Assembly: GCF_032854445.1 (NCBI RefSeq)
Contig: NC_088305.1
Coordinates: forward strand, 29,350,628-29,414,627
DNA length: 64,000 nucleotides
From: Liolophura sinensis
Taxonomy: Eukaryota > Mollusca > Polyplacophora > Chitonida > Chitonidae
Direction: 5' to 3'
Under the pieces are notes generated by a model. It was not told the DNA's origin and did no database searches. It was given only the letters and a program-made list of their open reading frames with translations. The position numbers and the translations under genes are program-made. The stretch's first letter is position 1. The number at the start of each line of letters is the position of its first letter. Positions 17,995-47,535 of the stretch are shown here, one piece after another.

Positions 17995-18625
17995 TAGACA
18001 AGGCACAATACACCACCAATCCACATTAGGCAAGGTACAATACGCCGTCAATCCACATTAGCCAGGGCTCAATACACCGCCAATCCACATAAGACAAGGT
18101 ACAATACACCACCAATCTGCATTAGACCAGGTACAATACACCGCCAATCCACATTAAGCAAGGTACAATATGCCCTCGATCCACATTAGCCAAGGCACAA
18201 CACACTTCAGTCCGCATTAGGTAAGGCACAGTACACCGCCAGCCCACATTAGGCAAGGCACAATACACTGCCAACCCACATTAGGCAAGATGAACCGCCC
18301 CCATTCACATTAGCCAAGGCACAATACACTGCCAATCCACATTAGCCAAGACTGCCCCCCCCCCCCCCCCCCCCACATTAGCCAAGGTACAATACACTAC
18401 CAATCCACGTTAGCCAAGGCAGAATCCACTGCTAATGCACATTATCCAAGGCACAATACACCACTGATGCACATCAACTTAGATGTAATACACCTACACC
18501 TAAGCAACGGTGCAATTCAACATGAATTGGTTAAGGTGCAATACACCACTAACCACACAGCTTGTGTATAATACCATCAGCATAATACACCTCCAGTACA
18601 CATCAGCCTAGCTGCAGTAGACAGC
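17995..18625. repeat. Tandem array a, about 32-bp units, diverged
   Basis: Degenerate tandem copies built around AAGGTACAATACACC, GCCAATCCACATTAG and C, with a period of about 32 bp. A run of about 20 C interrupts it at 18355-18374. The copies vary in sequence and length, suggesting an older array. The same unit reappears at 19500-19800. Confidence 0.85.
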
Positions 18626-18639
18626 ATACAGGCTTGGTA

Positions 18640-18902
18640 CACCAACACATTAGCACAGGTGACTAGTTGCAGCTACACTTGGCGCCCAGCATGGAGAGGT
18701 TAGAGCAAGGAAACTGGATTGTTTGGTTTGGTGCCCCTGTGTTACTGGATGGTGTGTCATGTCTGGTGTCTTCGGCATCATTCTTAGTGGCAACGTGACC
18801 TTTCTCTGCCTCAAGTTGACAGCGTATATATACACGCACCTAATGACTCTTTGCCACATGACTGAAAAATTGCTAAATACGACGTTAAAACCCACTCATT
18901 CG
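18640..18902 (+). mobile_element. SINE family B copy between arrays
   Basis: It contains GAGGTTAGAGCAAGGAAACTGG, a GTCATGTCTGGTGTCTTCGG block and the tail CACATGACTGAAAAATTGCT, then ACGTTAAAACCC. The middle block is the reverse complement of sequence at 40780-40880 and 59190-59300. The tail matches 6955-7000. It separates array a from array b. Confidence 0.65.
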
Positions 18903-18929
18903 TACAGGTTAACATACATGCTATACACC

Positions 18930-19499
18930 AACTCAGTCCTGGTGCAATGCACCACCAATTCAAGTGAGCTGAAGGTGCAATGCACCGCAGCGGCATACGT
19001 GTCTGAGGCACGAGAAATACATCAGTGTAGGTGCATTACACCACGAGCATAGGTGCAGTGCTTTTGCCAACATGCAGATGCGAGGCCTGAAAAACACTTA
19101 AGCATAAGTGCCATGCACCATGTGAGGCATCAGAAACAAGTCATTGTAAGTGGATTACTCGTAAGCATATTTGCAATGCACCATGTGAGGCACCAGAAAC
19201 AAGTCAATGAAAGGTGCAATGCACCACATTAGCATACATGCGAGACACCAGAAACTCTGTAGGTGCATTACACCACATGAGCATAGGTGTAATGCTTTAG
19301 CCAACATGCATGAAGAGGGAAGACACAAAAAACACTTCAGCATAAGTGCAATGCACGATGTGCGGCACCAAAAACCGGTCATTGTAAGCGCATTACTCGT
19401 AAGTATAGATGCAATGCATCAGCCAAGGTGCAATGCACCACATCAGCATAAATGTAGGTGTGAGGCACCATAAACACTTTAGCATAGGTATCATCAATA
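18930..19499. repeat. Tandem array b, irregular units around a near-palindromic 13-mer
   Basis: Repeated blocks carry GGTGCAATGCACC, which is palindromic except at its centre, with GAGGCACCAGAAACA and TAAGCATA between them. Unit lengths are irregular, and a longer block (array of about 230-240 bp) appears twice in diverged form around 19030-19140 and 19260-19380. Confidence 0.75.
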
Positions 19500-19800
19500 C
19501 ACAGGCCAAGGTGCAATACACCACTCTCCTTTAGCCTAAAGTACAATATGCTACCCTCGTTGGCCAAGGTGCACTACACCACCCATCCTCGTAAGCCAAG
19601 GTGCACTACACCACCCATCCTCATTGGCCAAGGCGCACTACACCACCCATCATTAGCCAGAGTGCAATACACCACCATCCTCATTTGCCAAGGTGCACTA
19701 CACCACCCTTCCTCATTAGCCAAGATGCACTACACCATCCATCCTCATAAACCCAGAGGCAGTGTTCCACCAGTTCACATTAGTCTAGGCAAAATACACC
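19500..19800. repeat. Second block of the 32-bp repeat (array a type)
   Basis: About nine copies of a unit near 32 bp containing GCCAAGGTGCACTACACCAC and CCATCCTCATT. It is a closer-knit version of array a, from which it is separated by the SINE and array b. Confidence 0.8.
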
Positions 19801-19854
19801 ACCAGATGATATTAACAATGCTTCAAACACGGGTCCAGTCCTGATACACTGATA

Positions 19855-22600
19855 CACCACACACATTGTGCATTTGCACTGCCTACATACAACGCCCACA
19901 AAATACATTGGTGCTCCCTAGACACCACCCACAAAATACAGTACTGCCTCGATAAACCACCCATAAAATACAGGAGTGCTGCCGACATCAAACACAGTAC
20001 ACATTAGTGCTGCCCAGATGCACTACCAACAAAATACATCAGAGTATACCACCCACAAATTACTTTAGTATTGCCTAGATATACCACACACGAATGCAAT
20101 ACCACTGCCTAGATACACAGTATACATCTTCTTACATAGATAAACCACCCACCGTACTATGAATACATATTAGTACTGCCTAGATACATAACCTACAAAA
20201 TATATAGTACTGCCTACATCACCCACAAAATACATTAGTGCTGCCTAGACACACCAGCTACAAAATCAGTTACTGCTGTGCAAATACGTCTCCACAAAAT
20301 ATGTCATACTCCCCAGATACTTCACCCGCAAAATACATCGTACTGCCCGGATACTTCACCCACAAAATACATCCTACTGTCCCGGTATATCACCCACAAA
20401 GTACATTGTACTGCCCGGATACATACCCATAAAATACATTGTATTGCCCGGATACATACCCATAAAATACATTGTATTGCCCGGATACATACCCATAAAA
20501 TACATTGTATTGCCCAGATACATACCCATAAAATACATAGTACTGCCTAGACCCATCACCCACAAAATACTTAGTACTAGATACATCACCCAGAAAATAC
20601 ATCAGTGCTGTTCAGAATGAATCGCCCACGAATTGCTTTAGTATTGCACAGATGTACCACTCACAAAATACATTACCACTGCCTAAATGTACAGTACACA
20701 TATGCTACATAGATAAACCTCCCACAATACAATGAATATACATTGCCCAGATACACCACCCACCAAATACTTAAGTTCCATCTTAGATATGCAATACACA
20801 GTGATGACTTAAAATATCAGTGGCATTCATTAGATACTGCCTCGATACATCACCCACAAAATACATAGTGCTGCCTACATTGCCCACAAAATACATTATT
20901 GCTGCCTACATTACCTACAAGATACATCATTGCTGCCTAGATACATCACCCAGAAAATACATCAGTGCTGTCTAGATACACCACCCACCAAATACATTAG
21001 TTCCATCTAGATATACCACCCACTAAATACATTAGTGTTGCCTACATCACCCACAAAATACATAACTGCTGCCTAGGTATATCACCCATAAAATACATTG
21101 CTACCTACATCACCCATAAAATACATTGCTACCTACATCACCCATAAAATACACTAGTGCTGTTGAGAATGCACAACTCGCAGATTACATGGTGCTACCT
21201 AGATAAACCACCCGCAAAGTGCAGTGCTACCTGGATAAACCACCCGCAAAGTACAGTGCTACCTAGATAAACCACCCGCAAAGTGCAGTGCTACCTGGAT
21301 AAACCACCCGCAAAGTGCAGTGCTGCTTCGATACACGACCCACAGAATACTGTGCTGCATTGATACACCATCCACAAAATACATAGTGCTGCATTGATAC
21401 ACCACCAACAAAATACATAGGGGGCCTCCGTGGCTCAGTCGGTTAAAGCGCTAGCGCAGTGTAATTACCCAGGAGTCTCTCACCAATGCGGTCGCTGTGA
21501 GTTCAAGTCCAGCTCATGCTGGCGGCCGTACGTGAGAAGGTCGGGCAGCAACCTGCGGATGGTTGTGGGTTTCCCCTGGGCTGTGCCCGGTTTCCACCCA
21601 CCATAATGCTGGCCGCCGTCATGTAAGTGAAATATTTTTGAGTACGTCGTAAAACACCAATCAAAAAAAAAAAAAAAAAATACATAGTGCTACCTGGATA
21701 CATTACTCGTGAAATACAGTGCTGCCTATAAACACCTCCCACAAAATGCATAGTGCTGCATGGATACACCAAGCACAAAACAGAGTGAATAGATACACTA
21801 CCCATAAAATACAGTGCTGCCTAGATACACCACCTTCAAAATGCAATAGTTCTTCCTAGATGCACCACCCACAAAACAGTTCTGCCTGGATAGGCCAACA
21901 ACATAATACATTTGGTTGAATAAGTACACCACACAAAATATACTAGTGCTTCATAAATACACCACCCGCAAAATAGTCCTGCCTGGATACAACCACAAAA
22001 TATATTAGGAGTGAATAGATGCACCACCCACAAATACAGATACACAGCACTAGTGCTTCCTAAATACACCGCCACCAAGATACGTTGCTGCCTAGTTACA
22101 CCAGCCACAAATACAGTACTGTCTAGATACACCACTGTTTAGATACACCACCTGCATAATGCATAGTGCTGCCTAAATGCATTACCCACAAAATACAGTG
22201 CTGTCTGGATACACCACCTGCAAAAATACATTATGCTACCTAGGTTTATCACCCACAAAATACATCAGTGTTGCCTGGATACACCACCCACAAAATGCAT
22301 TAGCACTACCAAGACACACACACCCTCAATACAATACTGCTTCTTAGATACTCCACTCACAAAGTACACTAGTGCTTCCAAGATACACCACCCGCAAAGT
22401 ATATAGTGCTGTTTGGAATATGCCACCCAAAAAGTACACTAGTGTTGCCAAGAATACACAACCCCAAAAGTAATGAATAAGGTCAAAATACTACACCCAA
22501 AATACACATTAGTGCTGACAAGTTACATCACCCACAAAATACATTAGCACCATCTTAGATGTGCAATCTACACACATTCCCAATGATGACTTAAAATATC
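19855..22600. repeat. Tandem array c, 33-35-bp units
   Basis: Diverged tandem units containing ACCACCCACAAAATACAT and TAGTGCTGCCTAGATAC. A young sub-array at about 20405-20540 repeats CCGGATACATACCCATAAAA every 33 bp with near identity, and another at about 21190-21320 repeats AAACCACCCGCAAAGTGCAG. The array is split by a full-length SINE at 21421-21680. Confidence 0.9.
21421..21680 (+). mobile_element. Full-length tRNA-derived SINE, family A, inserted in array c
   Basis: The head GGCCTCCGTGGCTCAGTCGG has an A-box-like TGGCTCAGTCGG, and GAGTTCAAGTCC is B-box-like. The body contains CAGCAACCTGCGGATGG and CACCCACCATAATGCTGG, then GTGAAATATTTTTGAGTACG, and it ends in AAAACACCAATCAAA plus poly(A). 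The array word AAATACATAG occurs on both sides, which looks like a target-site duplication, though the array itself repeats that word. It is the best reference copy for the other family A entries. Confidence 0.9.
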
Positions 22601-22619: not shown

Positions 22620-24460
22620 GGCTCACATAACCATCAATACACATCAATACATTAGCCCTTTGTACAAACATCACCAGTACACATTAGCCCTTTGTACAAA
22701 CATCACCAGTACACATTAGCCCTTTGTACAAACATCACCAATACACATTGGCCCCTTGCACAGACATCAGCATTACACATTAGCCCTTTGTACAGACATC
22801 ACCAATACACATTAGCCCTTTGTACAGACATCACCAATACACATTAGCCCTTTGTACAAACATCACCAGTACACATTAGCCCTTTGTACAAACATCACCA
22901 ATACACATTGGCCCCTTGCACAAACATCACCAATACACAGTCTTTTGTACAAGCATCACCAATGGCCATTAGCCCATTGTACAAACATATCAGTGCCCAT
23001 TAGCCCTTTGTACAAACATCACCAATACAAGTTAGCCCTTTGTACAAACATCACAAATACACATTGGCCCTTTGCTCCAACATCACCAATATACGCTAGC
23101 CCTTGATACAAATACTACCAATAGATATTAGCCCTTTGTACAAATGCCACTAATGCACATTAGCCTTTGTGCAAACATCATTATTACATATTTGCATTTT
23201 GTACAAACATCATCAATACACATTAGCCTTTTGTACAAACATCACCAATACACATTGGCCCTTTGCACAAACATCAGCATTACACATTAGCCCTTTGTAC
23301 AGACATCACCAATACACATTAGCCCTTTGTACAGACATCACCAATACACATTGGCCCTTTATACAAACATCACCATTACACATTGGCCCTTTGTACAGAC
23401 ATCACCAATACACATTAGCCCTTTGCACAAGCATCACAATACACATTAGCCCTTTGCACAGGCATCACCAATAGATATTGGCCTTTTGCATAAACATCAC
23501 CAATACAAGTTAGCCCTTTGTACAAACATCACAAATACACATTGGCCCTTTGCTCCAACATCACCAATATACGCTGGCCCTTGATACAAATACTACCAAT
23601 AGATATTAGCCCTTTGTACAAATGCCACTAATGCACATTAGCCTTTGTGCAAACATCATCATTACACATTTGCATTTTGTACAAACATCATCAATACACA
23701 TTAGCCTTTTGTACAAACATCACCAATACACATTGGCCCTTTGCACAAACATCAGCATTACACATTAGCCCTTTGTACAGACATCACCAATACACGTTAG
23801 CCCTTTGTACAGACATCATTACACATTGGCCCTTTGCACAAGCATCACAATACACATTGGCCCTTTGTACAGACATCACCAATACACATTGGCCCTTTGC
23901 ACAAACATCACCAATACACATTGGCCCTTTGCACAGACATCACCAATACACATTAGCCCTTTGCACAAGCATCACAATACACATTGGCCCTTTGCACAAG
24001 CATCACCAATAGATATTGGCCTTTTGCATAAACATCACCAATACAAGTTGGCCCTTTGCACAAATATCACCAATATATGCTAACCCTGGACACAAATACC
24101 ACCAATAGATAATAGCCCTTTGTACAAACTCCACCAATACACATTAGCCCTTGATGCAAACATCAATACACATTAGCCCTTGATGCAAACATCATCCATA
24201 CACATTAGCCTTTTGTACAAACACAACTAATACGCATTATCCTATCATACAAACACCAACAATACTTATTAGCCCATTGTACAAACATCACCAATACTCA
24301 TTAGCCTTTTGTACAAATATCAATACACATTAGCCCTTGATACAAACCGCTTCATTGTGCATTACCGGTACCCTTTTGTACAAACACTACCAGTACCCAC
24401 TAGCCCTTTGTACAACACCACCAGTACACATTAGCCTTTTATATTAGTCCTTTTATACAA
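22620..24460. repeat. Tandem array d, 32-bp units with a 478-bp higher-order duplication
   Basis: The unit carries CACATTAGCCCTTTGTACAA followed by ACATCACCAATA, period 32 bp. Variants alternate TTAGCCC/TTGGCCC and TACAAAC/CACAAGC/TACAGAC. A block starting near 23000 recurs 478 bp later: for example the word CCTTGATACAAATACTACCA is at 23101 and again at 23579. Copies become more diverged towards 24450. Confidence 0.92.
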
Positions 24461-24679: not shown

Positions 24680-27600
24680 CATATCAGTCAGAAACCGCAC
24701 CAATGCTCACATCAGTGAGAAACCGCACCAATGCGCACATCAGTCGGAAACACCACCAATGCGCACATCAGTCAGGAACACCACCAATGCGCACATCAGT
24801 CAGAAACCGCACCAGTGCTCACATCAGTTGGAAACACCACCAATGCACACATGAGTCAGGAACACCACCAATACAACCAATGCGCACATCAGTCAGGAAC
24901 ACCAATACAACAAATGCGCACATCAGTCAGAAACACTACCAATACAACCAATGCGCACATCAGTCAGAAACAGCACCAATGCGCACACCACTCAGAAACG
25001 CCACCAATATAATCAATGCGCACATCAGTCAGAAACCGCACATCAGTCAGAAACCGCACCAATGCGTACATCAGTCAGAAACACCACCAATGCGCACATC
25101 AGTCCGAAACACCACCAATACAACCAATGCTCACATCAGTCAGAAACACCACCAATACAACCAATGTGCACACCAGTCGGAAACACCACCAATGAGCACC
25201 TCAGTCAGAAACCCCACCAATGCAACCAATGCACACATCAGTCCGAAACCCCACCAATGCGCACATCAGTCCGAAACACCACCAATGCGCACATCAGTCA
25301 GAAACACCACCAATGTACACATCAGTCAGAAAACGCACCAATGTGCACACCACTCAGAAACACCACCAATACAACCAATGCGCACATCAGTCAGAAACAC
25401 TACCAATACAACCAATGCACACATCAGTCAGAAACACTACCTATACAACCAATGCGCACATCAGTCAGAAACTGCAACAATGCGCACATCAGTCAGGAAC
25501 TGCACCAATGCGCACACCACTCGGAAACACCACCAATACAACCAATGCGCACATCAGTAAGAAACACCACCAATGCACACATCAGTCAGAAACTCCATGA
25601 ATACAACCAAAGCGCACATCAGTCAGAAACACTATCAGTACAACCAATGTGCACATCAGTCAGAAACACTATAAATACAACCAATGCGCACATCAGTCAG
25701 AAACACCACCAATGCGCACACCACTCAGAAACACCACCAATACAATCAATGCGCACATCAGTCAGAAACACCACCAATGCGCACATCAGTCAGAAACACG
25801 ACCAATACAACCAATGCAGACAACAGTCAGAAACCGCACCAATGTGTACATCAGTCGGAAACACCACCAACGCACACATCAGTCAGGAACTCCACCAATG
25901 CGCACATCAGTCCGAAACACCACCAATACAACCAATGCTCACATCAGTCCGAAACACCACCAATACAACCAATGTGCACACCAGTCGGAAACACCACCAA
26001 TGCGCACATCAGTCAGAAACCCCACCAATGCAACCAATGCGCACATCAGTCAGAAACAGCACCAATGCGCACACCACTCAGAAACGCCACCAATATAATC
26101 AATGCGCACATCAGTCAGAAACCGCACATCAGTCAGAAACCGCACCAATGCGTACATCAGTCAGAAACACCACCAATGCGCACATCAGTCCGAAACACCA
26201 CCAATACAACCAATGCTCACATCAGTCAGAAACACCACCAATACAACCAATGTGCACACCAGTCGGAAACACCACCAATGAGCACCTCAGTCAGAAACCC
26301 CACCAATGCAACCAATGCACACATCAGTCCGAAACCCCACCAATGCGCACATCAGTCCGAAACACCACCAATGCGCACATCAGTCAGAAACACCACCAAT
26401 GTACACATCAGTCAGAAAACGCACCAATGTGCACACCACTCAGAAACACCACCAATACAACCAATGCGCACATCAGTCAGAAACACTACCAATACAACCA
26501 ATGCACACATCAGTCAGAAACACTACCTATACAACCAATGCGCACATCAGTCAGAAACTGCAACAATGCGCACATCAGTCAGGAACTGCACCAATGCGCA
26601 CACCACTCGGAAACACCACCAATACAACCAATGCGCACATCAGTAAGAAACACCACCAATGCACACATCAGTCAGAAACTCCATGAATACAACCAAAGCG
26701 CACATCAGTCAGAAACACTATCAGTACAACCAATGTGCACATCAGTCAGAAACACTATAAATACAACCAATGCGCACATCAGTCAGAAACACCACCAATG
26801 CGCACACCACTCAGAAACACCACCAATACAATCAATGCGCACATCAGTCAGAAACACCACCAATGCGCACATCAGTCAGAAACACGACCAATACAACCAA
26901 TGCAGACAACAGTCAGAAACCGCACCAATGTGTACATCAGTCGGAAACACCACCAACGCACACATCAGTCAGGAACTCCACCAATGCGCACATCAGTCCG
27001 AAACACCACCAATACAACCAATGCTCACATCAGTCCGAAACACCACCAATACAACCAATGTGCACACCAGTCGGAAACACCACCAATGCGCACATCAGTC
27101 AGAAACCCCACCAATGCAACCAATGCGCACATCAGTCAGAAACGCCACCAATGTGCACGAGTCAGAAACCGCACCAATGTGCACACCACTCAGAAACACC
27201 ACCAATACAACCAATGCGCACATCAGTCAGAAACACTACCAGTACAACCAATGCACACATCAGTCAGAAACACTACCAATACAACCAATGCGCACATCAG
27301 TCAGAAACACTACCAATACAACCAATGCGCACATCAGTCAGAAACACTACCAATACAACCAATGCGCACATCAGTCAGAAACACTACCAATACAACCAAT
27401 GCACACATCAGTCAGAAACACTACCAATACAACCAATGCGCACATCAGTCAGAAACTGCAACAATGCGCACATCAGTCAGGAACTGCACCAATGCGCACA
27501 CCACTCGGAAACACCACCAATACAACCAATGCGCACATCAGTCAAACACCACCAATACAACGAATGCACACATCAGTCAGAAACACTACCAATACAACCA

Positions 27601-29075
27601 ATGCGCACATCAGTCAGAAACTGCACCAATGCGCACACCACTCGGAAACACCACCAATACAACCAATGCACACATCAGTCAGAAACTCCACCAATACAAC
27701 CAATGCACACATCAGTCAGAAACTGCAACAATGCGCACATCAGTCAGGAACTGCACCAATGCGCACACCACTCGGAAACACCACCAATACAACCAATGCG
27801 CACATCAGTCAGAAACACCACCAATACAACCAATGCGCACATCAGTCAGAAACACCACCAATGCACACATCAGTCAGAAACTCCATGAATACAACCAAAG
27901 CGCACATCAGTCAGAAACACCACCAATGTGCACACCACTCAGAAACACCACCAATACAACCAATGCGCACATCAGTCAGAAACACTACCAATACAACCAA
28001 TGCACACATCAGTCAGAAACTCCACCAATACAACCAATGCACACATCAGTCAGAAACTGCAACAATGCGCACATCAGTCAGGAACTGCACCAATGCGCAC
28101 ACCACTCGGAAACACCACCAATACAACCAATGCGCACATCAGTCAGAAACACCACCAATACAACCAATGCGCACATCAGTCAGAAACACTACCAATACAA
28201 CCAATGCGCACATCAGTCACACACTATCAATACAACCAATGCGCACATCAGTCAGAAACTCTATCAATACAACCAATGCGCACATCAGTCAGAAACACTA
28301 TCAATACAACCAATGCGCACATCAGTCAGAAACACTACCAATGCACAAATCAGTCAGAAACTCCACCAATGCAACCAATGCGCACATCAATCAGAAATCA
28401 CACCAATGCACACCACTCGGAAACACCACCAATACAACCAATGGGCACATCAGTCAGAAACACCACCAATGCACACATCAGTCAGAAACACCACCAATAC
28501 AGCCAATGCGCACATCAGTCGGAAACACCAACAATGCGCAAATTAGTCGGAAACACCACAAATGCGCACATCAGTCGGAAAAGCCACCAATGCGCACATT
28601 AGTCAGAAACACCACCAATACAACCAATGCGCACACCAGTCGGAAACATCACCAATGCGCACATCAGTCGGAAACCCCACCAATGCGCACATCAGTCAGA
28701 AACCGCACCAACATGCACATCAGTCAGAAGCCGCACCAACGTGCACATCAGTCGGAAACACCAACAATGCGCAAATTAGTCGGAAACACCACAAATGCGC
28801 ACATCAGTCAGAAAAGCCACCAATGCGCACATTAGTCAGAAACACCACCAATACAACCAATGCACACACCAGTCGGAAACGCCATCAATGCGCACATCTG
28901 TCCGAAACCCCACCAATGCGCACATCAGTCAGAAACACTACCAATGCAACCAATGCACACATCAGTCAGAAGCCGCACCAACGTGCACATCAGTCAGAAG
29001 CCGCAGCAAAGTGTACATCAGTCAGAAGCCGCACCAATGCGCACATCAGAAGCCGCACTATTGCATGCAACATTA
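24680..29075. repeat. Tandem array e, mixed 28-bp and 37-bp units
   Basis: The largest array in the window. The short unit is CAGAAACNNCACCAATGCGC plus ACATCAGT (28 bp). The long unit has 9 extra bases, TACAACCAA, after the first ACCAA (37 bp). Both lengths are 1 mod 3 and contain no stop codon in any + frame, so all three + frames stay open for hundreds of codons, one for 1294 codons. The repeat language is the same in all frames, so these are not genes. A 1086-bp block is duplicated within it. Confidence 0.95.
24951..27141. repeat. Two tandem copies of a 1086-bp higher-order block inside array e
   Basis: Sequence starting near 24951 recurs 1086 bp later at 26037 without a difference that I could find by eye. 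For example AACAGCACCAATGCGCACAC starts at 24968 and 26054. The match continues until about 27141, where AACAGCACC in copy 1 becomes AACGCCACC after copy 2. Identity this high across a degenerate array implies a recent duplication or an assembly artefact. Confidence 0.88.
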
Positions 29076-31339: not shown

Positions 31340-31660
31340 ACAAGCGATACTAGTATGACACTACCAATACACATGAGACAGTAGTTCTAAACACTACCAA
31401 TACACCCGAGACAGTTCTAAACACTACCAAAAGACACAGCATTTGGAAACGCCACCAATACACATGACACCGCAGTTCTAAACACTACCAATACACATAC
31501 GAGACAGTTCTAAACACTACCAAAAGACACAGCATTTGGAAACACCACCAATACACATATGACACTGCAGTTCTAAACACTACCAGAAGAACAGCATTTG
31601 GAAACACCAATACACCCATGACAGCCATAAACCCCTCCAATACACCTGGCTGTCAGAAAC
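31340..31660. repeat. Tandem array h, irregular TTCTAAACACTACCAA units
   Basis: CAGTTCTAAACACTACCAA and GCATTTGGAAACACCACCAA blocks alternate. GCATTTGG occurs at about 31439, 31532 and 31594, spacings of 93 and 62 bp. The motif CACCACCAATACACATGACA links it to arrays e and f. Confidence 0.8.
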
Positions 31661-33469: not shown

Positions 33470-36400
33470 TAGGTTCCCGTGGTATGGTGGTCTCCTTTAG
33501 TGGTACTGACTTCCCTGCTTATTCAAATTTCTGATATTGGATTCCACTGGTATTGTGGCCTCCATTAGTGGTATTGGCTTCTCTTCCTATTTTGGCATGT
33601 ATTTCTGACATTGGATTGCACTGGTATGGTGGCCTCCATGATTGGTATTGGCCTTTCTTTGTATTTTGGCATGTATTTCTGACATTGTATTCCACTGGTA
33701 TGGTGGCCTCCGTTAGTTGTATTGGATTCCCTTTTTGTTTTGGCATGTATTTCTGACATTGGATTCCTCGTGTATGGTGGCCTCCGTTAGTGGTATTGGC
33801 TTCTGTTTTTCTTTTGGCATGTATTTGTGACATTATAATCCACTGGTACGGTGGTCTCTGTTAGTGGTACTGGCCTCCCTGCTTATTCCAATTTCTGATA
33901 TTGGAATCCACTGGTATGGTGGCCTCCGTTATTGGTATTGGATTCCCTGCTTATTCCAATTTCTGATATTGGGTTCCACTGGTATGGTGGCCTTCGTTAG
34001 TGGTATTGGATTCCCTGCTTATTCTAATTTCTGATAATATAATCCACTGGTATGGAGGTCTCCGTTAGTGGTATTGGATTCCCTGCTTATTCTAATTTCT
34101 GACATTGTAATCCACTGGTATGGAGGTCTCCGTTAGTGGTATTGGATTCCCTGCTTATTCTAATTTCTGATATTGTAATCCACTGGTATGGAGGTCTCCG
34201 TTAGTGGTACTGGATTCCCTGCTTATTCCAATTTCTGATATTGGAATCCACTGGTATGGAGGCCTTCGTTAGTGGTATTGGATTCCCTGTTTATTCCAGT
34301 TTCTGATATTGGATTCCACTGGTATGGTGGCCTCCATTAGTGGTATTGGATTCCCTGCTTATTCCAATTTCTGATATTGGAATCCACTGGTATGGTGGCC
34401 TCCGTTAGTGGTATAGGATTCCCTGCTTATTCCAATTTCTGATATTGTAATCCACTGGTATGGTGGCCTCCATTAGTGGTATTGGATTCCCTGCTTATTC
34501 CAATTTCTGATATTGTAATCCACTGGTAAGGTGGCCTCCGTTAGTGGTATTGGATTCCCTGCTTATTCCAATTTCTGATATTGGAATCCACTGGTATGGT
34601 GGCCTCCGTTAGTGGTATTGGATTCCCTGCTTATTCCAATTTCTGATATTGTAATCCACTGGCATGGAGGTCTCCGTTAGTGGTACTGGATTCCTTGCTT
34701 ATTCCAATTTCTGATATTGGAATCCACTGGTATGGAGGCCTTCGTTAGTGGTATTGGATTCCCTGTTTATTCCAATTTCTGATATTGTAATCCACTGGTA
34801 TGGAGGTCTCCGTTAGTGGTACTGGATTCCCTGCTTATTCCAATTTCTGATATTGGAATCCACTGGTATGGAGGCCTTCGTTAGTGGTATTGGATTCCCT
34901 GCTTATTCCAGTTTCTGATATTGGATTCCACTGGTATGGTGGCCTCCATTAGTGGTATTGGATTCCCTGCTTATTCCAATTTCTGATATTGGAATCCACT
35001 GGTATGGTGGCCTCTATTAGTGGTATTGGATTCCCTGCTTATTCCAATTTCTGGTATTGGAATCCACTGGTATGGTGGCCTCCATTAGTGGTATTGGATT
35101 CCCTGCTTATTCCAATTTCTGATATTGGAATCCACTGGTATGGTGGGGTCCGTTAGTGGTATTGGATTCCCTGCTTATTCCAATTTCTGATATTGTAATT
35201 CACTGGTATGGTAGCCTTCATTAGTGGTATTGGATTCCCTGCTTATTCTAATTTCTGATATTGTAATCCACTGGTATGGTGGCCTTCATTAGTGGTACTG
35301 GCCTCCCTGCTTATTATAATTTCTGATATTGGAATCCACTGGTATGGTGGCCTCCGTTAGTGGTATTGGATTCCCTGCTTATTCCAATTTCTGACATTGG
35401 AATCCACTGGTATGGTGGCCTTCATTAGTGGTATTGGCCTCTCTGCTTATTCCAATTTCTGACATTCGATTCCACTGGTATGGTGGCCTTCATTAGTGGT
35501 ATTGGCCTCTCTGCTTATTCCAATTTCTGACATTGGATTCCACTGGTGTGGTGGCCTCCGTTAGTGGTATTGGATTCCCTGCTTATTCTAATTTCTGATA
35601 TTGTAATCCACTGGTATGGTGGCCTCTGTTAGTGGTATTGGATTCCCTGCTTATTCTAATTTCTAATATTGTAATCCACTGGTATGGAGGTCTCCGTTAG
35701 TGGTATTGGTTTCCCTGTTTATTCTAATTTCTGATATTGTAATCCACTGGTATGGTGGCCTTCATTAGTGGTATTGGATTCCCTGCTTATTCCAATTTCT
35801 GATATTGTAATCCACTGGTATGGTGGCCTTCATTAGTGGTATTGGTTTCCCTGCTTATTCCAATTTCTTACATTAGAATCCACTGATATGGAGGTCTCCA
35901 TTAGTGGTATTGGCTTCTGTTTTTTGTTTTGGCATGCATTTGTGACCTTGTATTCCACTTTTATGGTGGCCTCCATTGATAAAGTGGTATTTGGACTCCC
36001 TTTGTATTTTAGGATGTATTTCTGACACTGGATTGGTGACCTCCATGGCATGGGGCTCCTTGTATATCTTGGCATGTATTTCTGACATTAGATTTGACTA
36101 GAGAGGTGGCCTCCTTAGGTTTTATCATGCATTTCTGATGTAGGATTCCACTGGTATGGTGGCCCCCGTTAGAGGTATTGGCCTCTCTTCGTATTTTGGC
36201 ATGTATTTCTGACATTGGATTCCACTGGTATGGTGGCCTCCATTAGTGGTATTGGCTTCTCTTCGTATTTTGGCATGTATTTCTGACATTGGATTCTACT
36301 GGTATGGTGGCTTCCATTAGTGGTGTTGGCCTCTCTTTGTGTTTTGGCATGTGTTTCTGACATTGGATTCCACTGGTATGGTGGCCTCCATGATTGGTAT

Positions 36401-37000
36401 TGGCCTCTCTTCGTATTTTGGCATGTATTTCTGACATTGTATTCCACTTGTATGGTGGCCTCCATTAGTGGTATTGGCCTCTCTTCGTATTTTGGCATGT
36501 ATTTCTGACATTGTATTCCACTTGTATGGTGACCTACATTAGTGGTATTGGCCTCTCTTTGTATTTTGGCATGTATTTCTGACATTGGATTCTATAGGTA
36601 TGGTGGCTTCCATTAGTGGCACTGGCCTCCCTTCGTATTTTGGCATGTATTTCTGACATTGGATTCCACTGGTATGGTGGCCCCCGTTAGAGGTATTGGC
36701 CTCCCTTCGTATTTTGGCATGTATTTCTGACATTGTATTCCACTGATATGGTGGCCTCCATTAGTGATATTTTGCTCCCTTTGTATTTTAAGATGTATTT
36801 CTGACATTGGTTTGGTGGCCTCCATGAGTGGCATGGGGCCCCTTGTATATCTTGGCATGTATTTCTGACATTGGATTTGACTAGAGAGGTGGCCTCCCTA
36901 CCTTTTATCATGCATTTCTGACATTACATGCCACTTGTATGGTACCCTCCATACGTTTTATCATGCATTTCTGACTTCTGCCTTCACTAGTGGTATTGGA
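33470..37000. repeat. Tandem array i, 68-bp core flanked by 74-bp variants
   Basis: Copies share ATTCCACTGGTATGGTGGCC and TCCGTTAGTGGTATTGG. In the middle (about 33840-35870) the unit is 68 bp with TTCCCTGCTTATTCCAATTT. For example CCCTGCTTATTC starts at 34081 and 34149. On both flanks (about 33540-33835 and 36170-36900) the unit is 74 bp, and that segment is replaced by CGTATTTTGGCATGTATTTC. The minus-strand open frames here repeat with the unit and are not genes. Confidence 0.93.
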
Positions 37001-37857
37001 AGTTGGTGCATCTATTACGACAGCCAGGCTCTGTCTAGCAGTTTTAACAGTTTAAAGTGAAAAATCTGCCACTATGTATTCATAGAAAAAAGGATATAGG
37101 ACACAGCACAGAAAAATACGTAAAAAAAATTCTGTCAAGTTTTGAAAGCAAAGAAGATGTAAGTTCAACACTGGGGATATGGCACTGACGGAAAGTTCAC
37201 TGTCATGTTGCAGAAGACCTTGTGAACTTGGCCAAGCATTTGCGTTCAAAGCGTCAGGTGATAATTAGCTGTCACCTCAAATAATCTATTAGCTCTCGAT
37301 TGTCAGTGTGGTTTTTTTTATAGTGGATAGACAGATATCAATGCAATAAATCGGATTTTGCGGTCAGGGAAAGTTTTAAACGATAGATTTCGTACCACAC
37401 ATTTATGAGCAGGGAACTGACAACAGCTGCCCTTGTCACAATGCGTACATGTTGGGCAGGATATTCCAGTAACTTGTCAGGGTGAGCTGGCAAGAAAAAC
37501 GCCTCGCAAGAGGCATTGCTTGAAGAAAAATATTGTGACTTTGCATTATTTTTTCTCAGCAAAGTCAGATTTATTACGAAAATACCTTCCCAAAATCTGA
37601 ATGAAAGGGTCTGTTATCTATCAGGTCCTGCAATGTTCGTGGAATTGCCTGAAGTCGGTACAGCCAGTAAGGCCAAATGCTTACACCCATGCAGGACAAG
37701 GACAAGCAGAACTGCTAAAACACAACGCTTGTGTTCACAAACATCGCCCTGACCGAGTGCCAAACTAAAAGAAACATCAGCCCTTTGAGCACGGAACAGA
37801 GCTTAAACTCTTTGGTTGGGTATCAGGTGTTTTTGTTTGTGTTGTCGCATTGTTTAA
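37001..37857. other. Spacer, no gene seen
   Basis: Unique sequence between array i and the piggyBac-like element. Short ORFs are present but none looks coding. Confidence 0.5.
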
Positions 37858-39650
37858 TTAACCCTGGAAAACCCACGGGGTCAAATTTGACCCCCACTAA
37901 AAGCTCTACTCCAAAGTGAACATATGTCAGCTGTTCTGAAATTTAACCTCAAATGCCCAAAGTCCCAATTCTGACCCCCCTGCAGAGACATCTGGGTCAA
38001 GGATGAGGAACTAACTCGAGCTGGAGAGGCAGTGACAAGATGGCTGCCCTCATACCCGCTTTGTTGTTGTAAGGAAGGTGCCAAATATTTCCTCAATTGG
38101 GCAATGCAGTGGTAAGTTACTGTGTGGGTTTGTTGTTAACATATTTACTAATCGCCCGTAGAAGCCCCATAGAAGGCATTAGTGTAGTTTTAGTACTGTG
38201 TTTGATCAGGGTAGTGATTTGCAAAAATGACCCTTTGGGTCTTACGGTGAATTATGTTCCAAATATAGGTCACAGTCAAGTATATAGCTAAAGCTTCCAA
38301 ATTACTCGACATAGGCCTAGATAAATTTAGTCAAAGAAAATAATGGAAGATAAAAACACCATTTTCCAACGGAATCGATAAATATTGTAAAAATATTTTT
38401 TTTATTTTATTTCATTCTTCTTGTCCTCGGCGCGGATATAGAAATACAATAGTATGGACGATATTGCAATATTATAGTAGGTACATGTACCACTAAGATA
38501 GACCTAAAGACAATAACATGAAATAAAAGATACAAACAAGCACGGATCAGAGTGAAATGAAGCCTTGCACATAGGTCTGCATTTTTGCTATTATTACATA
38601 TACGATAACATGTACTAAGCCGATTTTCAAAGGGAAAAAAATAAAATAATCCAAAAAGGCATATATCGAATATACTAGAAACAGGTACAATTAGACCGAT
38701 AGCATGTACAAAAGTTCTGTTTTCAACACATTCAAACAATATCATATAAAATAGGTCTGTAGCAAATAAAATGAAACAAACTTATCTATGGAAGGCCTTA
38801 TCGCCAATATATTGAAATAAAACCATATGGAGTAAGCAGATTGAACTGAAATAATGTATAGTAACAATAAACTAAAAATATACTTACGTTCAAAAGAGTG
38901 ACAAAAATGCAGTCTACAGACATTTTTCTAACACGTAAAATAAGATGCTATAAAGTATAAATAAATACATTTATATAGTGCCCTGATAATTAGATTATTT
39001 ACTGCACCATATATCTGTATAAGTGTACCTGATATTTCTTTCACGCCAGTTATTACATGTGAAATAGATAATTCGCTTTCCATTACCACTTGCACATCGT
39101 TATATAAATAAAATAGGCTACGTCCGGTAACAAACACTAATTTAGTAAATACGTTTTATCTGTTCACAGAATATGACTAGTAGCAGCGCAACACCTGTTA
39201 CACCGCGTCAAAGATTCAGTGTCAGGCAAGTAATAGACCAGCTTGATGCTGATGATAGTGACTTTGGTCCGGAGATAGACAGCGATTCTGATGACGAACT
39301 ATTTCATCCGGACGAGAGTGATGGCAATGACTCCTCAACCCAAGACAATGAGTCATCCAGTGATGAAGATGTGCCGTTAGCTGAGCTCACTGGGCCACAG
39401 AAGGAGCAAAATCGAGCTGCGAAGACTTATAGATGGTTGAAGAAGGATTTTGAGGTGCCTGACGTTAACTTTCAAGATGAGCCTGCTGTATCCGGGAATC
39501 AGGACGACACTCCACTGGTGTATTTTCGTCGCTTCTTTACCGTTGATATGTTGGAAAATATTGTTGAGCATACCAACCGGTACAGCGTACAAAAGCATGG
39601 GAAATGTGTGGATACCTCAATAATACCGATGGTACAGTGAAGCTTCAAGG
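37858..39650 (+). mobile_element. 5' part of a piggyBac-like DNA transposon
   Basis: A TTAA tetranucleotide (37858-37861) is followed directly by CCCTGGAAAACCCACGGGG, as expected for a piggyBac end at its TTAA target. A perfect 18-nt palindrome, GGGGTCAAATTTGACCCC, lies at 37877-37894, and a diverged half-copy (TGACCCCCCT) follows near 37974. About 1.3 kb downstream is the transposase N-terminus (39173-39640). A possible 5' intron runs from GTAAGTTACT at about 38111 to CAG at 39169. No matching 3' end was found before 41 kb, so the element is truncated. Confidence 0.7.
39173..39640 (+). pseudogene. Truncated piggyBac-type (PGBD) transposase, N-terminal 155 residues
   Basis: The ATG at 39173 opens a frame with an acidic Ser/Asp-rich N-terminus (SDFGPEIDSDSDDE, SSSDEDVPLAEL) as is usual in PGBD proteins. 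It then reads YFRRFFTVDMLENIVEHTN and RYSVQKHGK, which matches the start of the DDE_Tnp_1_7 domain. It stops at 39638-39640 just after that point, where intact transposases are several hundred residues longer. No DDD catalytic residues are present, so it cannot be an active transposase. A domesticated short protein is possible but unsupported. Confidence 0.75.
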
Positions 39651-41399: not shown

Positions 41400-43060
41400 A
41401 TTTGTGGTATTCGTTAGTGGCATTGCTTTCCATTGGTATCGTGGTATCCTTTAGTGGCATTGGTTTCCATTGGTATTGTGGAATCCTGTAGTGACATTGG
41501 TTTCCATTGGTATTGTGGTATCCTTCAGTGGCTTTGGTTTCCATTGGTATTGTGGTATCCTTTAGTGGCACGGGTTTCCATTGGTATTGTGGTATCCTTT
41601 AGTGGCATTGGTTTCCATTGGTATTATGGAATCCTTTAGTGGCATTGGTTTCCATTGGTATTGTGGTATCCTTTAGTGACATTGGTTTCCATTGGTATTG
41701 TGGTATCCTTTAGTGACATTGGTTTCCATTGGTATTGTGGTATTCTTCAGTGTCTTTGGTTTCCATCGGTATTGTGGTATCCTCTGGTGGCATTGGTTTC
41801 CATTGGTATTGTGGTATCCTTAATGGCATTGATTTCCATTGATATTGTGGTATACTTTAGTGGAATTGGTTTCCTTTGATGTTGTGGAATCCTGTAGTGG
41901 CATTGGTTTCCATTGGTATTGTGGTATCCTTTGATGGCATTGTTTTCTACTAATATTGTGGTATCCTTTGGTGGCATTGGTTTCCATTGGTATTGTGGAA
42001 TCCTGTAGTGGCATTGATTTCCATTGGTATTGTGGTATCCTTTGATGGCATTGTTTTCTACTAATATTGTGGTATCCTTTGGTGGCATTGGTTTCCATTG
42101 GTATTGTGGAATCCTGTAGTGGCATTGATTTCCATTGGTATTGTGGTATCCTTTGATGGCATTGTTTTCCACTAATATTGTGGTATCCTTTGGTGGCATT
42201 GGTTTCCATTGGTATTGTGGTATCCTTTGGTGGCATTGGTTTCCACTGGTATTGTTGTATCCTTTGGTGGCATTTGTTTCCATTGGTATCATTCAGTGGC
42301 ATTGATTTCCAGTAGTATTGTGGTATCCTTTAGTGGCATTGATTTCCTTTGATATTGTAGTATCCTTTAGTGGCATTGGTTTCCTTTGGTATTGTGGTAT
42401 CATTTGGTCACATTGATTTCCATTGGTGTTGTGGTATCGTTTAGTGGCATAGATTTCCTTTGATATTGTGGTATCCCTTAGTGGCATTGGTTTCCTATGG
42501 TATTGTGGTATCCTTTAGGGGCATTGATTTCCATTGGTATTGTGGTATCCTTTGATGGCATTGTTTTCTACTAATATTGTGGTATCCTTTGGTGGCATTG
42601 GTTTCCATTGGTATTGTGGAATCCTGTAGTGGCATTGATTTCCATTGGTATTGTGGTATCCTTTGATGGCATTGTTTTCCACTAATATTGTGGTATCCTT
42701 TGGTGGCATTGGTTTCCATTGGTATTGTGGTATCCTTTGGTGGCATTGGTTTCCACTGGTATTGTTGTATCCTTTGGTGGCATTTGTTTCCATTGGTATC
42801 ATTCAGTGGCATTGATTTCCAGTAGTATTGTGGTATCCTTTAGTGGCATTGATTTCCTTTGATATTGTGGTATCCCTTAGTGGCATTGGTTTCCTATGGT
42901 ATTGTGGTATCCTTTAGGGGCATTGATTTCCTTTGGTATTGTGGTATCCTTTAGTGCCATTGGTCTCCGTTGACACTGCTTTCCATTGGTACTGTGGTAT
43001 CATTTAATGGCATTAGTTTCCATTGGTATTGTGGTATCCTTAATGGCATTGATTTCCACT
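41400..43060. repeat. Tandem array j, 37-bp units with 111-bp and 510-bp higher orders
   Basis: The unit contains GGCATTGGTTTCCATTGGTA and TTGTGGTATCCTTTAGT, period 37 bp. Three-unit sets recur every 111 bp (CATTGTTTTC at 41938, 42049 and 42160). A larger block recurs 510 bp apart (ATTCAGTGGCATTGATTTCC at 42291 and 42801). Open minus-strand frames of 95-181 codons follow the repeat (37 is 1 mod 3, stop-free unit) and are rejected as genes. Confidence 0.93.
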
Positions 43061-45349
43061 GGTATCTGTTTTACAACAAGTATTTGTGGTTTTTGTGAGA
43101 AGTTAATAGGTCAGTCCAGGCTGAGTTATGCATTGATTGGAAATCTGAGTATCCGAGTCTGTGCCAAAACTGTTTTGCTACATGCTGACAAAACTGTTTA
43201 ACCAGCAATTCTATGAATTGCTGGATTTCAGTGTCACTTTCAACCACGCCAACATTATTTGTATCCCAAATAAGCGCTGCCTTATTGAAGTATCACAGTG
43301 TGGACACCACAGTTTAATCAACTGACAACAACAGGCATGAAGCACCACCCTGTCAGGTCACTTTATAATGAAATTTTACGATATAGTGCTGCCTTAATGA
43401 AGCATCATGCAGACACCACTTCTCAGGTGAAGACACCAGACATGGGTTGCACACAGTCATGTTATACCAATATTTTACAACACAGTACTGTCTTAACAAA
43501 GTATCATGATGTAGACACCACTGACTAACTCTCCTGCATGTGATACACACAATTTAACCTACAGAGCCCATCTTGTATGCTGTGTTGATGGAAAGCAGGT
43601 GATCTCTGATGGCCTTCATGTAACACCACCTGAACAGCACTGTTTATCGCTTACTGGCAACAGTACCCCAATACCAATGGCTGGGGAGGTGGAATGTCAA
43701 GGAGTTGGAATAAACCAGCACATCATGTGTCATAGCCAGTGAAAGACAAGGGCAAACAAGTAAAACATGATAGCAATTTAATGTTGCCATAAAAGTTGAT
43801 TTAAATGACAATAAAACTGTCTTACTGGGACGACATTCCCAGCAGTGTTAACCTGGAAACATTGAGTGTTTCTGCATTCTGTACAATAAAGGGGAATTTT
43901 GAAGAGATAAGGGATCAATTGTGATTGGTTGACTGGACGAACGTCACTGATGATTGGCTGCCTCTGATGCTGATTGAAAGTATCAAGAATGGGTTCGAAG
44001 AAAAATATTTGGATGCTCCCTTACGATTAGTAACGAATGATAAAAACTGACGGAGAAAACATTTTTAGGTTTTAGATTACCCAATGTCCTCGTGAAATTC
44101 CTTTGGCAAGACCTAAGTACTGGTAAATTAACTGTTTACAAAAAAAAAGCTGGTAAACCGACAAAAATTTTTAAAACAGTAACTACGAGTTCCAATAAAA
44201 TATGAAATGTTGTATGAATAAAAAAAATCTTGGTTGTCCTATTTAAAATAACCTTAACACTCAACAGTTAACATAAAACTTCAATCACCTTTAACAAAAT
44301 TGAAAAATAAAAAGTCAGCAATAAACCAAACACCTTTCAAAGTTAACATTGGCATTCCAGATTGAACCCTTTTATATAAGAGGGTCTACAGTAGAGTGAC
44401 CTATAAAAGCCCCTAAGATCTCTACAGATCATCAAATATCAAGTTAAAAATTAAAGAAAAACACAAAAGACGATTGAAAATCAAGCTCTTGAAAGTCCAT
44501 AAAGGAGGCCGTCTCTTATAGACCCTCTTCACTGTTTATTTATTAAAGACAAAATCCTTTTAGTTCATAACACATACGATACCTGTACTTAACCTTGACA
44601 AGAAAAAAATTTGTGATTTTTAATTCATAGATTACGCTCGATGTGTAAGGAATATTAATAATAGTTCACCTTGTCAATTTGATAAATGAGAAAATGACAT
44701 GTAACGAACAATAATTATTTGCTGTGCTCTCAAATAAAAATTATTAAATGACATGCTAAGCAAAAACACCCTCAAATGAAAAGAACAAAAATATTCAAAT
44801 GAATGGCAAATATTAGCTTCAGCTTTACAATCACTTTGAAAGTAATATTAATAGAAAATATTTTCTAGTTTATTCAACAGTATCATGTATTCAGTCACAC
44901 AATGCTGCAATGTCCTCGACACATTACGTTGTAACATTTAACTTCATACTTCATATTTTTAAGTCCATACTGATAAAATTTTTAAAACATTGAAATTTCC
45001 ACCATGCTGTTAAGTCTACATTTGTGTTCAGGTTCAAAAGCAATGTACAATTATCCATGCACCAACTTTGATTCTGATTAACTTTAAAATGGCAGAGAAA
45101 ATAGGATGGGGGTGCCTGAAGGTGGGGATCTTCTTTGATCAAACTAAAGATATATTACTTTCTATCTAGCCAACACCCCTTAGCCATATCGTATATGCAA
45201 AGTTAATCCTTTTTATATAAAAAAAATGAACGACATAAAGCAAATGGAGATACGGCATCTACACATATACCCTCAATAATTTGTACACGAAAAACCGCTA
45301 TATCTTTCATGTTGACCAAAATACTGTGGATTTGGAAGAATGTCTTTAC
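43061..45349. other. Spacer, no gene seen
   Basis: AT-rich unique sequence. A short piece near 43425-43450 (GAAGACACCAGACATGG) resembles family B SINE, but too little is left to annotate. No coding frame, RNA gene or array was recognised. Confidence 0.5.
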
Positions 45350-46135
45350 CATCTACATTTTGTCACTCACTGTTCTGTAAACCATCTTGTTACTGATCAA
45401 CCAACCATGTCACTGGCTATACTGTAAGCCATCTTGTTACTGATCAACCAACCATGTCACTGGCTATATTGTAAGCCATCTTGTTACTGATCAACCAACC
45501 ATGTCACAGGCTATATTGTAAGCCATCTTGTTACTGATCAACCAACCATGTCACTGGCTAAATTGTAAACCATCTCATTACTGATCAACCAACCATGTCA
45601 CTGGCTATATTGTAAACCATCTCGTTACTGATCAACCAACCATGTCACTGGCTATATTGTAAGCCATCTGGTTACTGATCAACCAACCATGTCACTGGCT
45701 ATATTGTAAGCCATTTTGTTACTGATCAACCAACCATGTCACTGGCTATATTGTAAGCCATTTTGTTACTGATCAACCAACCATGTCACTGGCTATATTG
45801 TAAACCATCTTGTTACTGATCAACCAACCATGTCACTGGCTATATTGTAAACCATCTTGTTACTGATCAACCAACCATGTCACTGGCTATATTGTAAGCC
45901 ATCTTGTTACTGATCAACCAACCATGTCACTGGCTATATTGTAAGCCATCTTGTTACTGATCAACCAACCATGTCACTGGCTATATTGTAAACCATCTTG
46001 TTACTGATCAACCAACCATGTCACTGGCTATACTGTAAACCATCTTGTTACTGATCAACCAACCATGTCACTGGCTATACTGTAAGCCATCTTTGTTACT
46101 GATCAACCAACCATGTCACTGGCTATATTGTAAGA
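45350..46135. repeat. Tandem array k, 47-bp units, highly uniform
   Basis: About 16 copies of a 47-bp unit with TTACTGATCAACCAACCATG and TCACTGGCTATATTGTAA. For example GATCAACCAACC starts at 45395 and 45442. Differences between copies are few (AAGCCATCTTG/AAACCATCTCG), so the array was homogenised recently. Confidence 0.95.
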
Positions 46136-47535
46136 CACCAAGTTGCTGTCAATTCAAGCACGCTATGTCAGTGACTATTCTGTAAACCGTATTGTTATTA
46201 ATAAACAAAACTTATAGACTCAGTGACTGTACTGAATATCCAAACATACTGTGTCAGTAACTGTACTGTGAACCATCTTGTTACTGATGATCCAAACCTA
46301 CTGTGTCAGTGACTGTACTGTAAATCATCTAGTTACTGATGACCCAAACATACTGCGTCAACGACTGTACTGTAAACCATCTTATTACGGATGACCCAAA
46401 CGTACTGTCAATGACTACTTTAAACCATCTTATTACAGATGACCCAAACGTACTGTGTCAGTGACTATACTGTAAATCATCTAGTTACTGATGACCTAAA
46501 CATACTGTGTCAGTGACTGCACTGTAAATCATCTAGTTACTGATGACCCAAACATATTGTGTCAGTGACTGTACTGTAAATCATCTTGTTACTGATGACC
46601 CAAACATACTGTGTCAGTGACTGTACTGTAAATCATCTTGTTACTGATGATCCAAACATACTGTGTCAGTGACTGCACTGTAAATCATCTAGTTACTGAT
46701 GACCCAAACATATTGTGTCAGTGACTGTACTGTAAATCATCTTGTTACTGATGACCCAAACATACTGTGTCAGTGACTGTACTGTAAATCATCTTGTTAC
46801 TGATGACCCAAACATACTGTGTCAGTGACTGTACTGTAAATCATCTTGTTACTGATGACCCAAACATAATGTGTCAACGACTTTACTGTAAACCATCTTA
46901 TTACAGATGACCCAAACGTACTGTGTCAGTGACTTTACTGTAAACCATCTTATTACAGATGACCCAAACGTACTGTGTCAGTGACTATATTGTAACCCAT
47001 CTTGTTACTGATGACCCAAACATACTGTGTCAATGACTGTACTGTAAATCATCTAGTTATTGATGACCCAAACATACTGCGTCAGTGACTGTACTGTAAA
47101 CCATTTTGTTACTGATGACCCAACCATCTGTCAGTGACTACTGTAAACCATCTAGTTACTGATAACCCAAACATACTGTGATATACACTGTACTGTAAAC
47201 CATCTTGTTATTGATGACCCAACCATGCGGTGTCAGTGACTGTACTGTGAACCATCTCGTTACTGATGACCCAAACATATTGTCAGTGACTGTACCATAA
47301 ACCATGTTCTGATGACCCAAACATACTGTGTCAGTGACTGTACTGTAAACCATCTTTTTACTGATGACCCAACCATACTGTTCAGTGACTGTACTGTAAA
47401 CCATTTTGTTACTAATGACCCAAACATACTGTGTCAGTGACTGTACCATAAACCATGTTCTGATGACCCAAACATACTGTGTCAGTGACTCTACTGAAAA
47501 CGTTACCTTGTCACTGATGACCCAAACATACATGT
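46136..47535. repeat. Tandem array l, about 52-bp units, diverged relative of array k
   Basis: The unit carries TTACTGATGACCCAAACATA, CTGTGTCAGTGACTGTACTG and TAAATCATCTTG. ATGACCCAAACATACTG is at 46751 and 46803, a 52-bp step. It shares ATCTTGTTACTGATNA and the GTCANTGNCT segment with array k and follows it directly. More copies are truncated or mutated, so it looks older. Confidence 0.92.

What the first reader, a model, noticed from the sequence alone, without database searches (positions are those of the whole stretch)
17995..47535. Repeat island of at least ten different tandem arrays between two gene blocks
Arrays a to l with unit lengths of 28/37, 32, 33-35, 29-31, 37, 47, 52, 68/74 and 108 bp follow each other across about 29 kb, with little unique sequence between them. 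One locus hosting so many separate satellite-like arrays is unusual. It suggests a site prone to repeated unequal exchange, rolling-circle amplification or slippage, or one that recruits such sequences.
Basis: seen in the sequence. Interest (0 to 1): 0.75.

Follow-up and report, generated by a model that had tools for sequence, protein, structure and literature searches.

The report
Private minisatellite cluster in a chiton
A stretch of chiton DNA between two genes is packed with short tandem repeats that look like a few families that grew in place, an extreme but ordinary case in a genome rich in such repeats.

Summary
The repeats are real: 15 array blocks of at least 150 bp; tandem arrays cover 59.6% of 17,995-47,535. 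They are not ten unrelated satellites. Composition-controlled unit and profile comparisons reduce them to about five families (A/B, C, D-H, I/J, K); counting weak links differently gives three to six. Genome searches found I, J, K and B/C only here. D and F also matched four other loci at 67-73% identity. One of two control minisatellites gave a similar match, and a 16-bp-unit array matched many loci.

It is minisatellite-rich: 15 of 20 control 10-kb slices hold an array of at least 150 bp, mean cover 5.8%. This island is extreme in total array length, not in number of families. Denser mixtures lie just right of the window (7 arrays in 10 kb) and on C10 (11 in 30 kb).

Block duplications (1,092-bp offset at 98.5%; 478; 510 bp) fit in-place slippage and unequal exchange. 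Verdict: known kind, extreme example.

The parts
17994..19850 (+). Family A/B: 32-bp unit (17994-18462, 19555-19748) with degenerate copies between; holds a run of 20 C at about 18355-18374 and a dispersed element at about 18.66-18.89 kb
19851..22547 (+). Family C: 33-35-bp unit, interrupted by the SINE-like element
   Evidence: only this locus found in the genome (query 19555-21418)
21421..21678 (+). SINE-like dispersed element with A tail inside array C, between two AATACATAG copies (21412-21420, 21679-21687); the 39 other full matches listed are 93-96% identical. The label SINE is by recall (tRNA-like head, A tail)
22649..24440 (+). Array D: 32-bp unit, 478-bp block lag; link to E-H moderate only
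24683..29049 (+). Array E: 28- and 37-bp units, 1,219-bp block repeated at offset 1,092 with 98.5% identity
29478..30597 (+). Array F: 59-bp composite unit, clearly related to E
30640..30971 (+). Array G: 108-bp unit, 3.1 copies, 98% matches, related to E/F
31358..31705 (+). Array H: 33/93-bp unit (TRF 31358-31609) with a degenerate tail to about 31705
33459..37001 (+). Family I/J, array I: 68- and 74-bp units, each about two 37-bp units (TRF to 36879, degenerate tail to about 37.0 kb)
41402..43065 (+). Family I/J, array J: 37-bp unit, 510-bp block lag
45361..47531 (+). Family K: 47-bp (left) and 52-bp (right) units; no relative found in the island
39149..39640 (+). Open frame with a weak match to transposase family DDE_Tnp_1_7 (E 0.0044, 16.8 bits, below the 22.4-bit cut-off); piggyBac type by recall
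4261..11102 (+). CDK12/13 gene (kinase exons to last long exon), left neighbour, reading towards the island
49456..50477 (-). Right neighbour gene, MPLKIP-like by recall only, reading towards the island
   Evidence: Pfam found nothing

Best explanation
The island is a cluster of a few (about five) locus-private minisatellite families in the gap between two convergent genes of a chiton. Each family began as a local duplication of a short stretch (about 30-50 bp). It grew by replication slippage and unequal exchange (or gene conversion), drifted by point changes and small indels into sub-arrays with different unit lengths (28/37, 47/52, 68/74), and was re-expanded by duplication of blocks of 0.5-1.1 kb. 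Shown: the closer family relations, units found at no other locus (or only at low identity), block duplications, mixed unit lengths, the genome background. Inferred: the order of events, the molecular mechanism, and the lack of function.
For: Profiles built from the units match family mates above dinucleotide shuffles: F on E 54.5, H 29.5, G 28.3, D 24.3 bits (best shuffle 6.3); I on J 52.3 (5.6); J on I 30.9 (9.3); A on B 36.2 (no shuffle listed). Genome searches with I, J, K and B/C returned only this locus. Block duplications: E 1,219 bp at 98.5%, offset 1,092; strong lags of 478 bp in D and 510 bp in J. Neighbouring units are more alike than distant ones in 4 of 8 arrays (E r -0.07, I -0.33, K47 -0.33, K52 -0.19). 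Background of one array of at least 150 bp per 10 kb on average, present in 15 of 20 slices. Unit spacings are multiples of three in 12 of 292 cases over five arrays, so no reading frame is kept.
Against: Likeness did not fall with distance in 4 of 8 arrays (D, J, A and C; C was tested with the SINE-like element left in), and the effect in E is tiny. Both edges are lower than the centre in E, I and K52, clearly only in I. D matched C1 and C6, and F matched C10 and C13 (67-73% identity, best E 7.6e-27); the F profile scores 22.0 bits on the C10 locus and 14.7 on the C13 locus, and D scores 14.3 on C6, all above shuffles, so a shared ancestor elsewhere is not excluded. The D-F link (24.3 bits) is hardly stronger than F-C10 (22.0). 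Unit comparisons with other loci reach z 10.4 (D-C6), above A-D (8.6), and an array from an unselected slice reached 6.1 with B, so the weaker family links are uncertain. Total array length (17.4 kb) is far above background and no reason for that is shown.
Confidence: 0.85

Rival explanations
1. Dispersed satellite or transposon-borne repeats (for example Helitron-carried satellites, as in oysters) landed here by transposition or by reinsertion of circles.
For: Matches of D and F at four other loci, above shuffles in profile tests. Helitron-linked scattered satellites are reported for the Pacific oyster (PMC8268682, abstract seen). A transposase-like fragment and a SINE-like element lie in the island.
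Against: I, J, K and B/C were found nowhere else. A control minisatellite from an unselected slice found another locus at the same level (67%, E 3.3e-26; F to C10 was 67%, E 7.6e-27), another found none, and a 16-bp-unit array matched many loci (51 first-look candidates, 40 scored). A 14-mer of the units occurs 15 times in the genome (4 in this island; its backward control 7), a scrambled 14-mer 16 times (backward control 12).
Confidence: 0.07
2. The locus is a special hot spot that keeps seeding or recruiting new minisatellites, for example by chronic breakage or replication stress where two genes converge.
For: 59.6% array cover over 29.5 kb and seven more arrays in the 10 kb right of the window. 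15 separate blocks would have Poisson P 5.5e-7 if they were independent.
Against: Counted as families, five or more in 29.5 kb has P 0.18 and six or more P 0.08 at one array per 10 kb. The left flank is ordinary (L019, 6.1%), and another cluster exists on C10.
Confidence: 0.15
3. The arrays encode a repetitive protein or form a functional transcript.
For: A 1,294-aa open frame at 24,951-28,835.
Against: The consensus unit of array E has no stop in any of the three forward frames, so long frames are open by composition; spacings in E are multiples of three in 3 of 114 cases. No Pfam match for that frame. Transcription was not testable.
Confidence: 0.02
4. Assembly artefact (collapsed or mis-joined arrays).
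For: Reads average 8.3 kb at 14x (PMC11068029, passages seen), so the 13.7-kb left block needs overlapping reads within repeats. Reads were not available here.
Against: No N in the window. The longest single array (4.4 kb) is shorter than the mean read, and units are heterogeneous.
Confidence: 0.04

Closest known systems
Locus-specific minisatellites (VNTRs) of animal genomes (general knowledge)
   Same: Units of 28-108 bp, arrays of 0.2-4.4 kb, unit sequence found only here or only at low identity elsewhere, variant units, block duplications
   Different: Several families side by side with unusually large total length; variation between individuals not tested
Scattered satellite DNA of molluscs, including Helitron-associated satellites of the Pacific oyster (PMC8268682, abstract seen)
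   Same: Short scattered tandem arrays in a mollusc genome; similar share (6.33% satellites there; 5.8% minisatellite cover in 20 slices here)
   Different: The oyster satellites are families spread over the genome and often tied to mobile elements; here the same units were not found at high identity elsewhere
Higher-order repeats of satellite arrays (general knowledge)
   Same: Blocks of many units (best lags 33 units in E, 15 in D, 14 in J) repeated as wholes
   Different: Few rounds of block duplication, in intergenic minisatellites

Membership tests
Minisatellite array | Head-to-tail units of roughly 10-100 bp, arrays up to a few kb | tested here: met
   G has a 108-bp unit
Minisatellite array | Unit sequence specific to the locus | tested here: met
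   I, J, K, B/C only here. D/E and F-H also gave low-identity matches at four other loci. The search of 17,994-22,547 was filled by the SINE-like element (40 of 6,280 candidates scored). Array A had no search of its own and appeared as a relative of B. Tool counts are lower bounds.
Minisatellite array | Copy number variable between individuals | not testable with these tools
   one assembly, no reads
Dispersed satellite DNA family | Same unit in many or very long arrays across the genome | tested here: not met
   14-mer count
Helitron- or TE-borne satellite | Arrays bounded by the same element ends at many loci | tested here: inconclusive
   lack of high-identity copies argues against it; element ends were not searched for

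The most novel reading that the evidence does not exclude
Chiton genomes contain discrete nurseries where new minisatellites are born repeatedly. This gap with its right flank and the C10 cluster are two of them, driven by a local property such as breakage, replication stress or convergent transcription rather than by the repeat sequences themselves.
Probability: 0.15. Interest if true: 0.5.

Novelty: new member of a known kind. Interest (0 to 1): 0.22.

Why it matters
It shows that a mollusc genome whose published repeat table gives 0.08% for 'simple repeat, microsatellite, RNA' (PMC11068029, passage seen) carries minisatellites in 15 of 20 sampled 10-kb slices, about 5.8% of the sampled sequence. 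The island also keeps a readable record of block duplication. If such clusters prove non-random, they would be a natural system for asking where minisatellites are born. As a single locus it is ordinary.

Tried and rejected
Core motif shared by minisatellites genome-wide: CACCACCAATACAC occurs 15 times (11 outside this locus; backward control 7), a scrambled control 16 times (backward control 12). Not supported.

Inverted relation between the CA-rich arrays (D-H) and the GT-rich arrays (I/J): no minus-strand match between them in the self-comparison at E 1e-10 (its minus-strand matches lay in spacers and flanks), none among the 60 best of 552 unit comparisons shown, none among the profile rows shown. 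Not supported.

Strand asymmetry as a signal: units E, F and G are individually rare against unique stretches of equal length (P 0.006, 0.004, 0.001), but B, C, D, I and K are not (0.07-0.46), and related units are not independent. Over 25 independent arrays of the 20 control slices the mean percentile is 0.54, KS p 0.08, 5 of 25 at or above 0.95. Not established.

Coding arrays: not supported. RNA families at gathering score and tRNAs: none in the window.

The search of 17,994-22,547 scored 40 of 6,280 candidates, nearly all SINE-like copies, and says nothing on arrays A-C, so one search was run on 19,555-21,418.

Literature: searches (minisatellite, tandem repeat, chiton, mollusc, island, unequal, slippage and similar) listed up to 15 titles each out of up to 1,450; none of the listed titles was on such chiton islands. 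Only listings were seen for these, apart from one outline with abstract (PMC8268682). The eLife chiton comparison PMC12005716 (three passages seen) holds no occurrence of 'satellite' in its main text. This is not proof of absence.

Full report
WHERE IT IS. The window is contig C11, 29,350,628-29,414,627, of a 609,464,459-base genome in 632 contigs. Of the 13 large contigs whose lengths one search gave, 9 are identical to lengths in the published table of the chiton assembly GCA_032854445.1, 2 (C10, C13) differ by 5.4 and 3.3 kb, and 2 (C6, C7) were not in the passages I saw (PMC11068029, passages; comparison). The contig count of 632 and the N50 of 37,343,639 also agree; the published total is 31 kb longer. 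The species was published as Liolophura japonica and corrected to L. sinensis (PMC12441733, whole text). C11 equals scaffold_7 in length, and the window ends 3.4 Mb before its end. The assembly used PacBio HiFi reads averaging 8,347 bp at 14x plus Omni-C.

NEIGHBOURS. On the left a CDK12/13 gene reads towards the island. The frame 6,202-6,414 matches solved CDK13 and CDK12 chains best (E 8.9e-34 and 9.6e-34, the next kinase CDK9 at 5e-14). The long open frame ending at 11,102 is read as its last exon by recall of the CDK12/13 tail. On the right a gene on the minus strand reads towards the island. I read it as MPLKIP from its N-terminal make-up and a 'MEDPW' exon; that name is recalled and Pfam gave nothing. 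Frames with weak WD40 matches below the cut-offs follow (the name WDR24 is recalled). The island therefore lies in a gap of about 38 kb between two convergent genes.

THE OBSERVATION. The repeat finder gives 82 rows in the window. Merged, the island holds 15 blocks of at least 150 bp, 17,435 bp in all; arrays with units of 15 bp or more cover 59.6% of 17,995-47,535 and 77% of 17,994-31,710. The flanking parts of the window hold 0.9% and 2.6%. Twenty control slices of 10 kb, placed by hand at round coordinates on 13 large contigs, hold 0-18.8% (mean 5.8%). 15 of 20 hold at least one array of 150 bp or more, one per slice on average, the longest 1,236 bp.

HOW MANY FAMILIES. Two tests controlled for base composition. 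In one search, 24 unit consensuses were compared in all pairs and both directions (552 comparisons, 200 shuffles each). In one search, a profile from unit pairs of each of 10 arrays was run against the island, 28 fetched loci and five dinucleotide shuffles of each block. A and B go together (36.2 bits, z 18.1). C stands on both sides of the SINE-like element (56.7 and 52.0 bits). E, F, G and H go together (F profile: E 54.5, H 29.5, G 28.3; best shuffle 6.3). I and J go together (52.3 against 5.6). K stands alone. D joins E-H with moderate support: 24.3 bits and 16 hits under the F profile, z 9.1 with F, but only 7.7-7.9 bits in the reverse test (best shuffle 7.0). Against this, the F profile also scores 22.0 bits on the C10 locus and 14.7 on the C13 locus, D scores 14.3 on the C6 locus, and D-C6 reaches z 10.4, so D's link is not much better than matches to loci elsewhere. 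A and D are linked weakly (z 8.6; 8.1 bits, 12 hits). C and D are linked more weakly (z 3.4, no profile match). The answer is about five families, three to six depending on these links, and not ten.

DISPERSED OR PRIVATE. Whole-genome searches with I, J, K and B/C returned only this locus. A stretch of D/E returned this locus plus four rows at two loci on C1 and C6 (69-73%, E 5.4e-6 and 3.5e-5). F-H returned this locus plus five rows at two loci on C10 and C13 (67-72%, best E 7.6e-27). Three further searches put these in proportion. A 61-bp array from a control slice was private. A 26-bp array from another had one other match, 67%, E 3.3e-26. The 16-bp-unit array of the C10 locus matched many loci (42 rows; 40 of 51 candidates scored). 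Low-identity cross-matches are thus not rare among arrays of this genome and need no shared descent, though they do not exclude it. Two controls are few. The tool warns that it skips very common words and that counts are lower bounds. One search was filled by the SINE-like element and is no evidence on A-C.

HOW IT GREW. Array E holds a 1,219-bp block repeated at offset 1,092 with 98.5% identity; D has a strong lag at 478 bp and J at 510 bp, in line with best unit lags of 33, 15 and 14. Unit lengths come in two states within arrays: 28 and 37 in E, 68 and 74 in I, 47 and 52 in K. Likeness falls with distance in E, I, K47 and K52 (1, 0, 1 and 5 of 500 permutations as extreme; r -0.07, -0.33, -0.33, -0.19) but not in D, J, C or A (97, 127, 416 and 110 of 500); C was tested with the SINE-like element left in. 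Both edges are lower than the centre in E, I and K52, clearly only in I. A SINE-like element 93-96% identical to its 39 best listed copies sits in array C between two AATACATAG copies, so that point of C seems not to have been re-amplified since. AATACATAG-like strings also occur in the unit, so the target duplication is likely, not proven. All this fits local slippage plus unequal exchange of blocks. The molecular step was not observed.

IS THE SITE SPECIAL. At one array per 10 kb, Poisson probabilities in 29.5 kb are 0.57 for three or more, 0.18 for five or more and 0.08 for six or more, against 5.5e-7 for 15 independent blocks. With 17.4 kb of array, the unusual feature is size more than variety. 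Variety is higher elsewhere: the 10 kb to the right of the window (L020) holds seven arrays, the best of 42 comparisons among them at z 3.9; a 30-kb stretch on C10 (L021, L001, L022) holds 11, with two of 110 comparisons above z 6. C10 was found through its match to array F and L020 is a flank, so neither is a random draw, and the background rests on 20 slices.

REJECTED READINGS. The 1,294-aa open frame follows from a unit without stops in any forward frame, and spacings in E are multiples of three in 3 of 114 cases. A genome-wide core motif is not supported. Strand asymmetry is marked in E-G but not clearly above chance over independent arrays. An inverted relation between the CA-rich and GT-rich halves was not found.

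VERDICT. A real, large cluster of largely locus-private minisatellites in a minisatellite-rich chiton genome: a known kind at an extreme size. The nursery reading remains open at low probability and can be tested with public data.

Noticed in passing
L020 (G000:C11:29414628-29424627), directly right of the window: Seven minisatellite arrays in 10 kb (31.6% cover), units 19-172 bp, hardly related to each other.
   Followed up: partly
L021, L001, L022 (G000:C10:29438500-29468499): A second cluster: 11 arrays in 30 kb with units of 16-105 bp, 23-53% cover per 10 kb.
   Followed up: partly
whole genome (20 control slices): Sampled minisatellite cover is about 5.8%, while the published table gives 0.08% for simple repeats, microsatellites and RNA; the arrays may sit among its 14% unclassified repeats (a guess).
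   Followed up: no
window 18355-18374: A run of 20 C within array A; a candidate for local instability or a sequencing error.
   Followed up: no
window 21421-21678; partial copies near 4.4-4.6, 29.2-29.3, 32.6-32.8, 39.9, 40.1-40.2 and 55.0-55.2 kb: SINE-like dispersed repeat with 6,280 first-look candidates genome-wide; several partial copies in the window share its 3' part.
   Followed up: partly
window 18662-18871 and 40670-40902 (also 59187-59309): A second dispersed element, in opposite directions in the first two places.
   Followed up: no
window 4261-11102 and 49456-50477: CDK12/13 next to an MPLKIP-like gene; these are neighbours in human by recall, so the pairing may be an old microsynteny.
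   Followed up: no
window 60829-61043 and 52356-52449: Two further small 19-bp tandem arrays outside the island.
   Followed up: no
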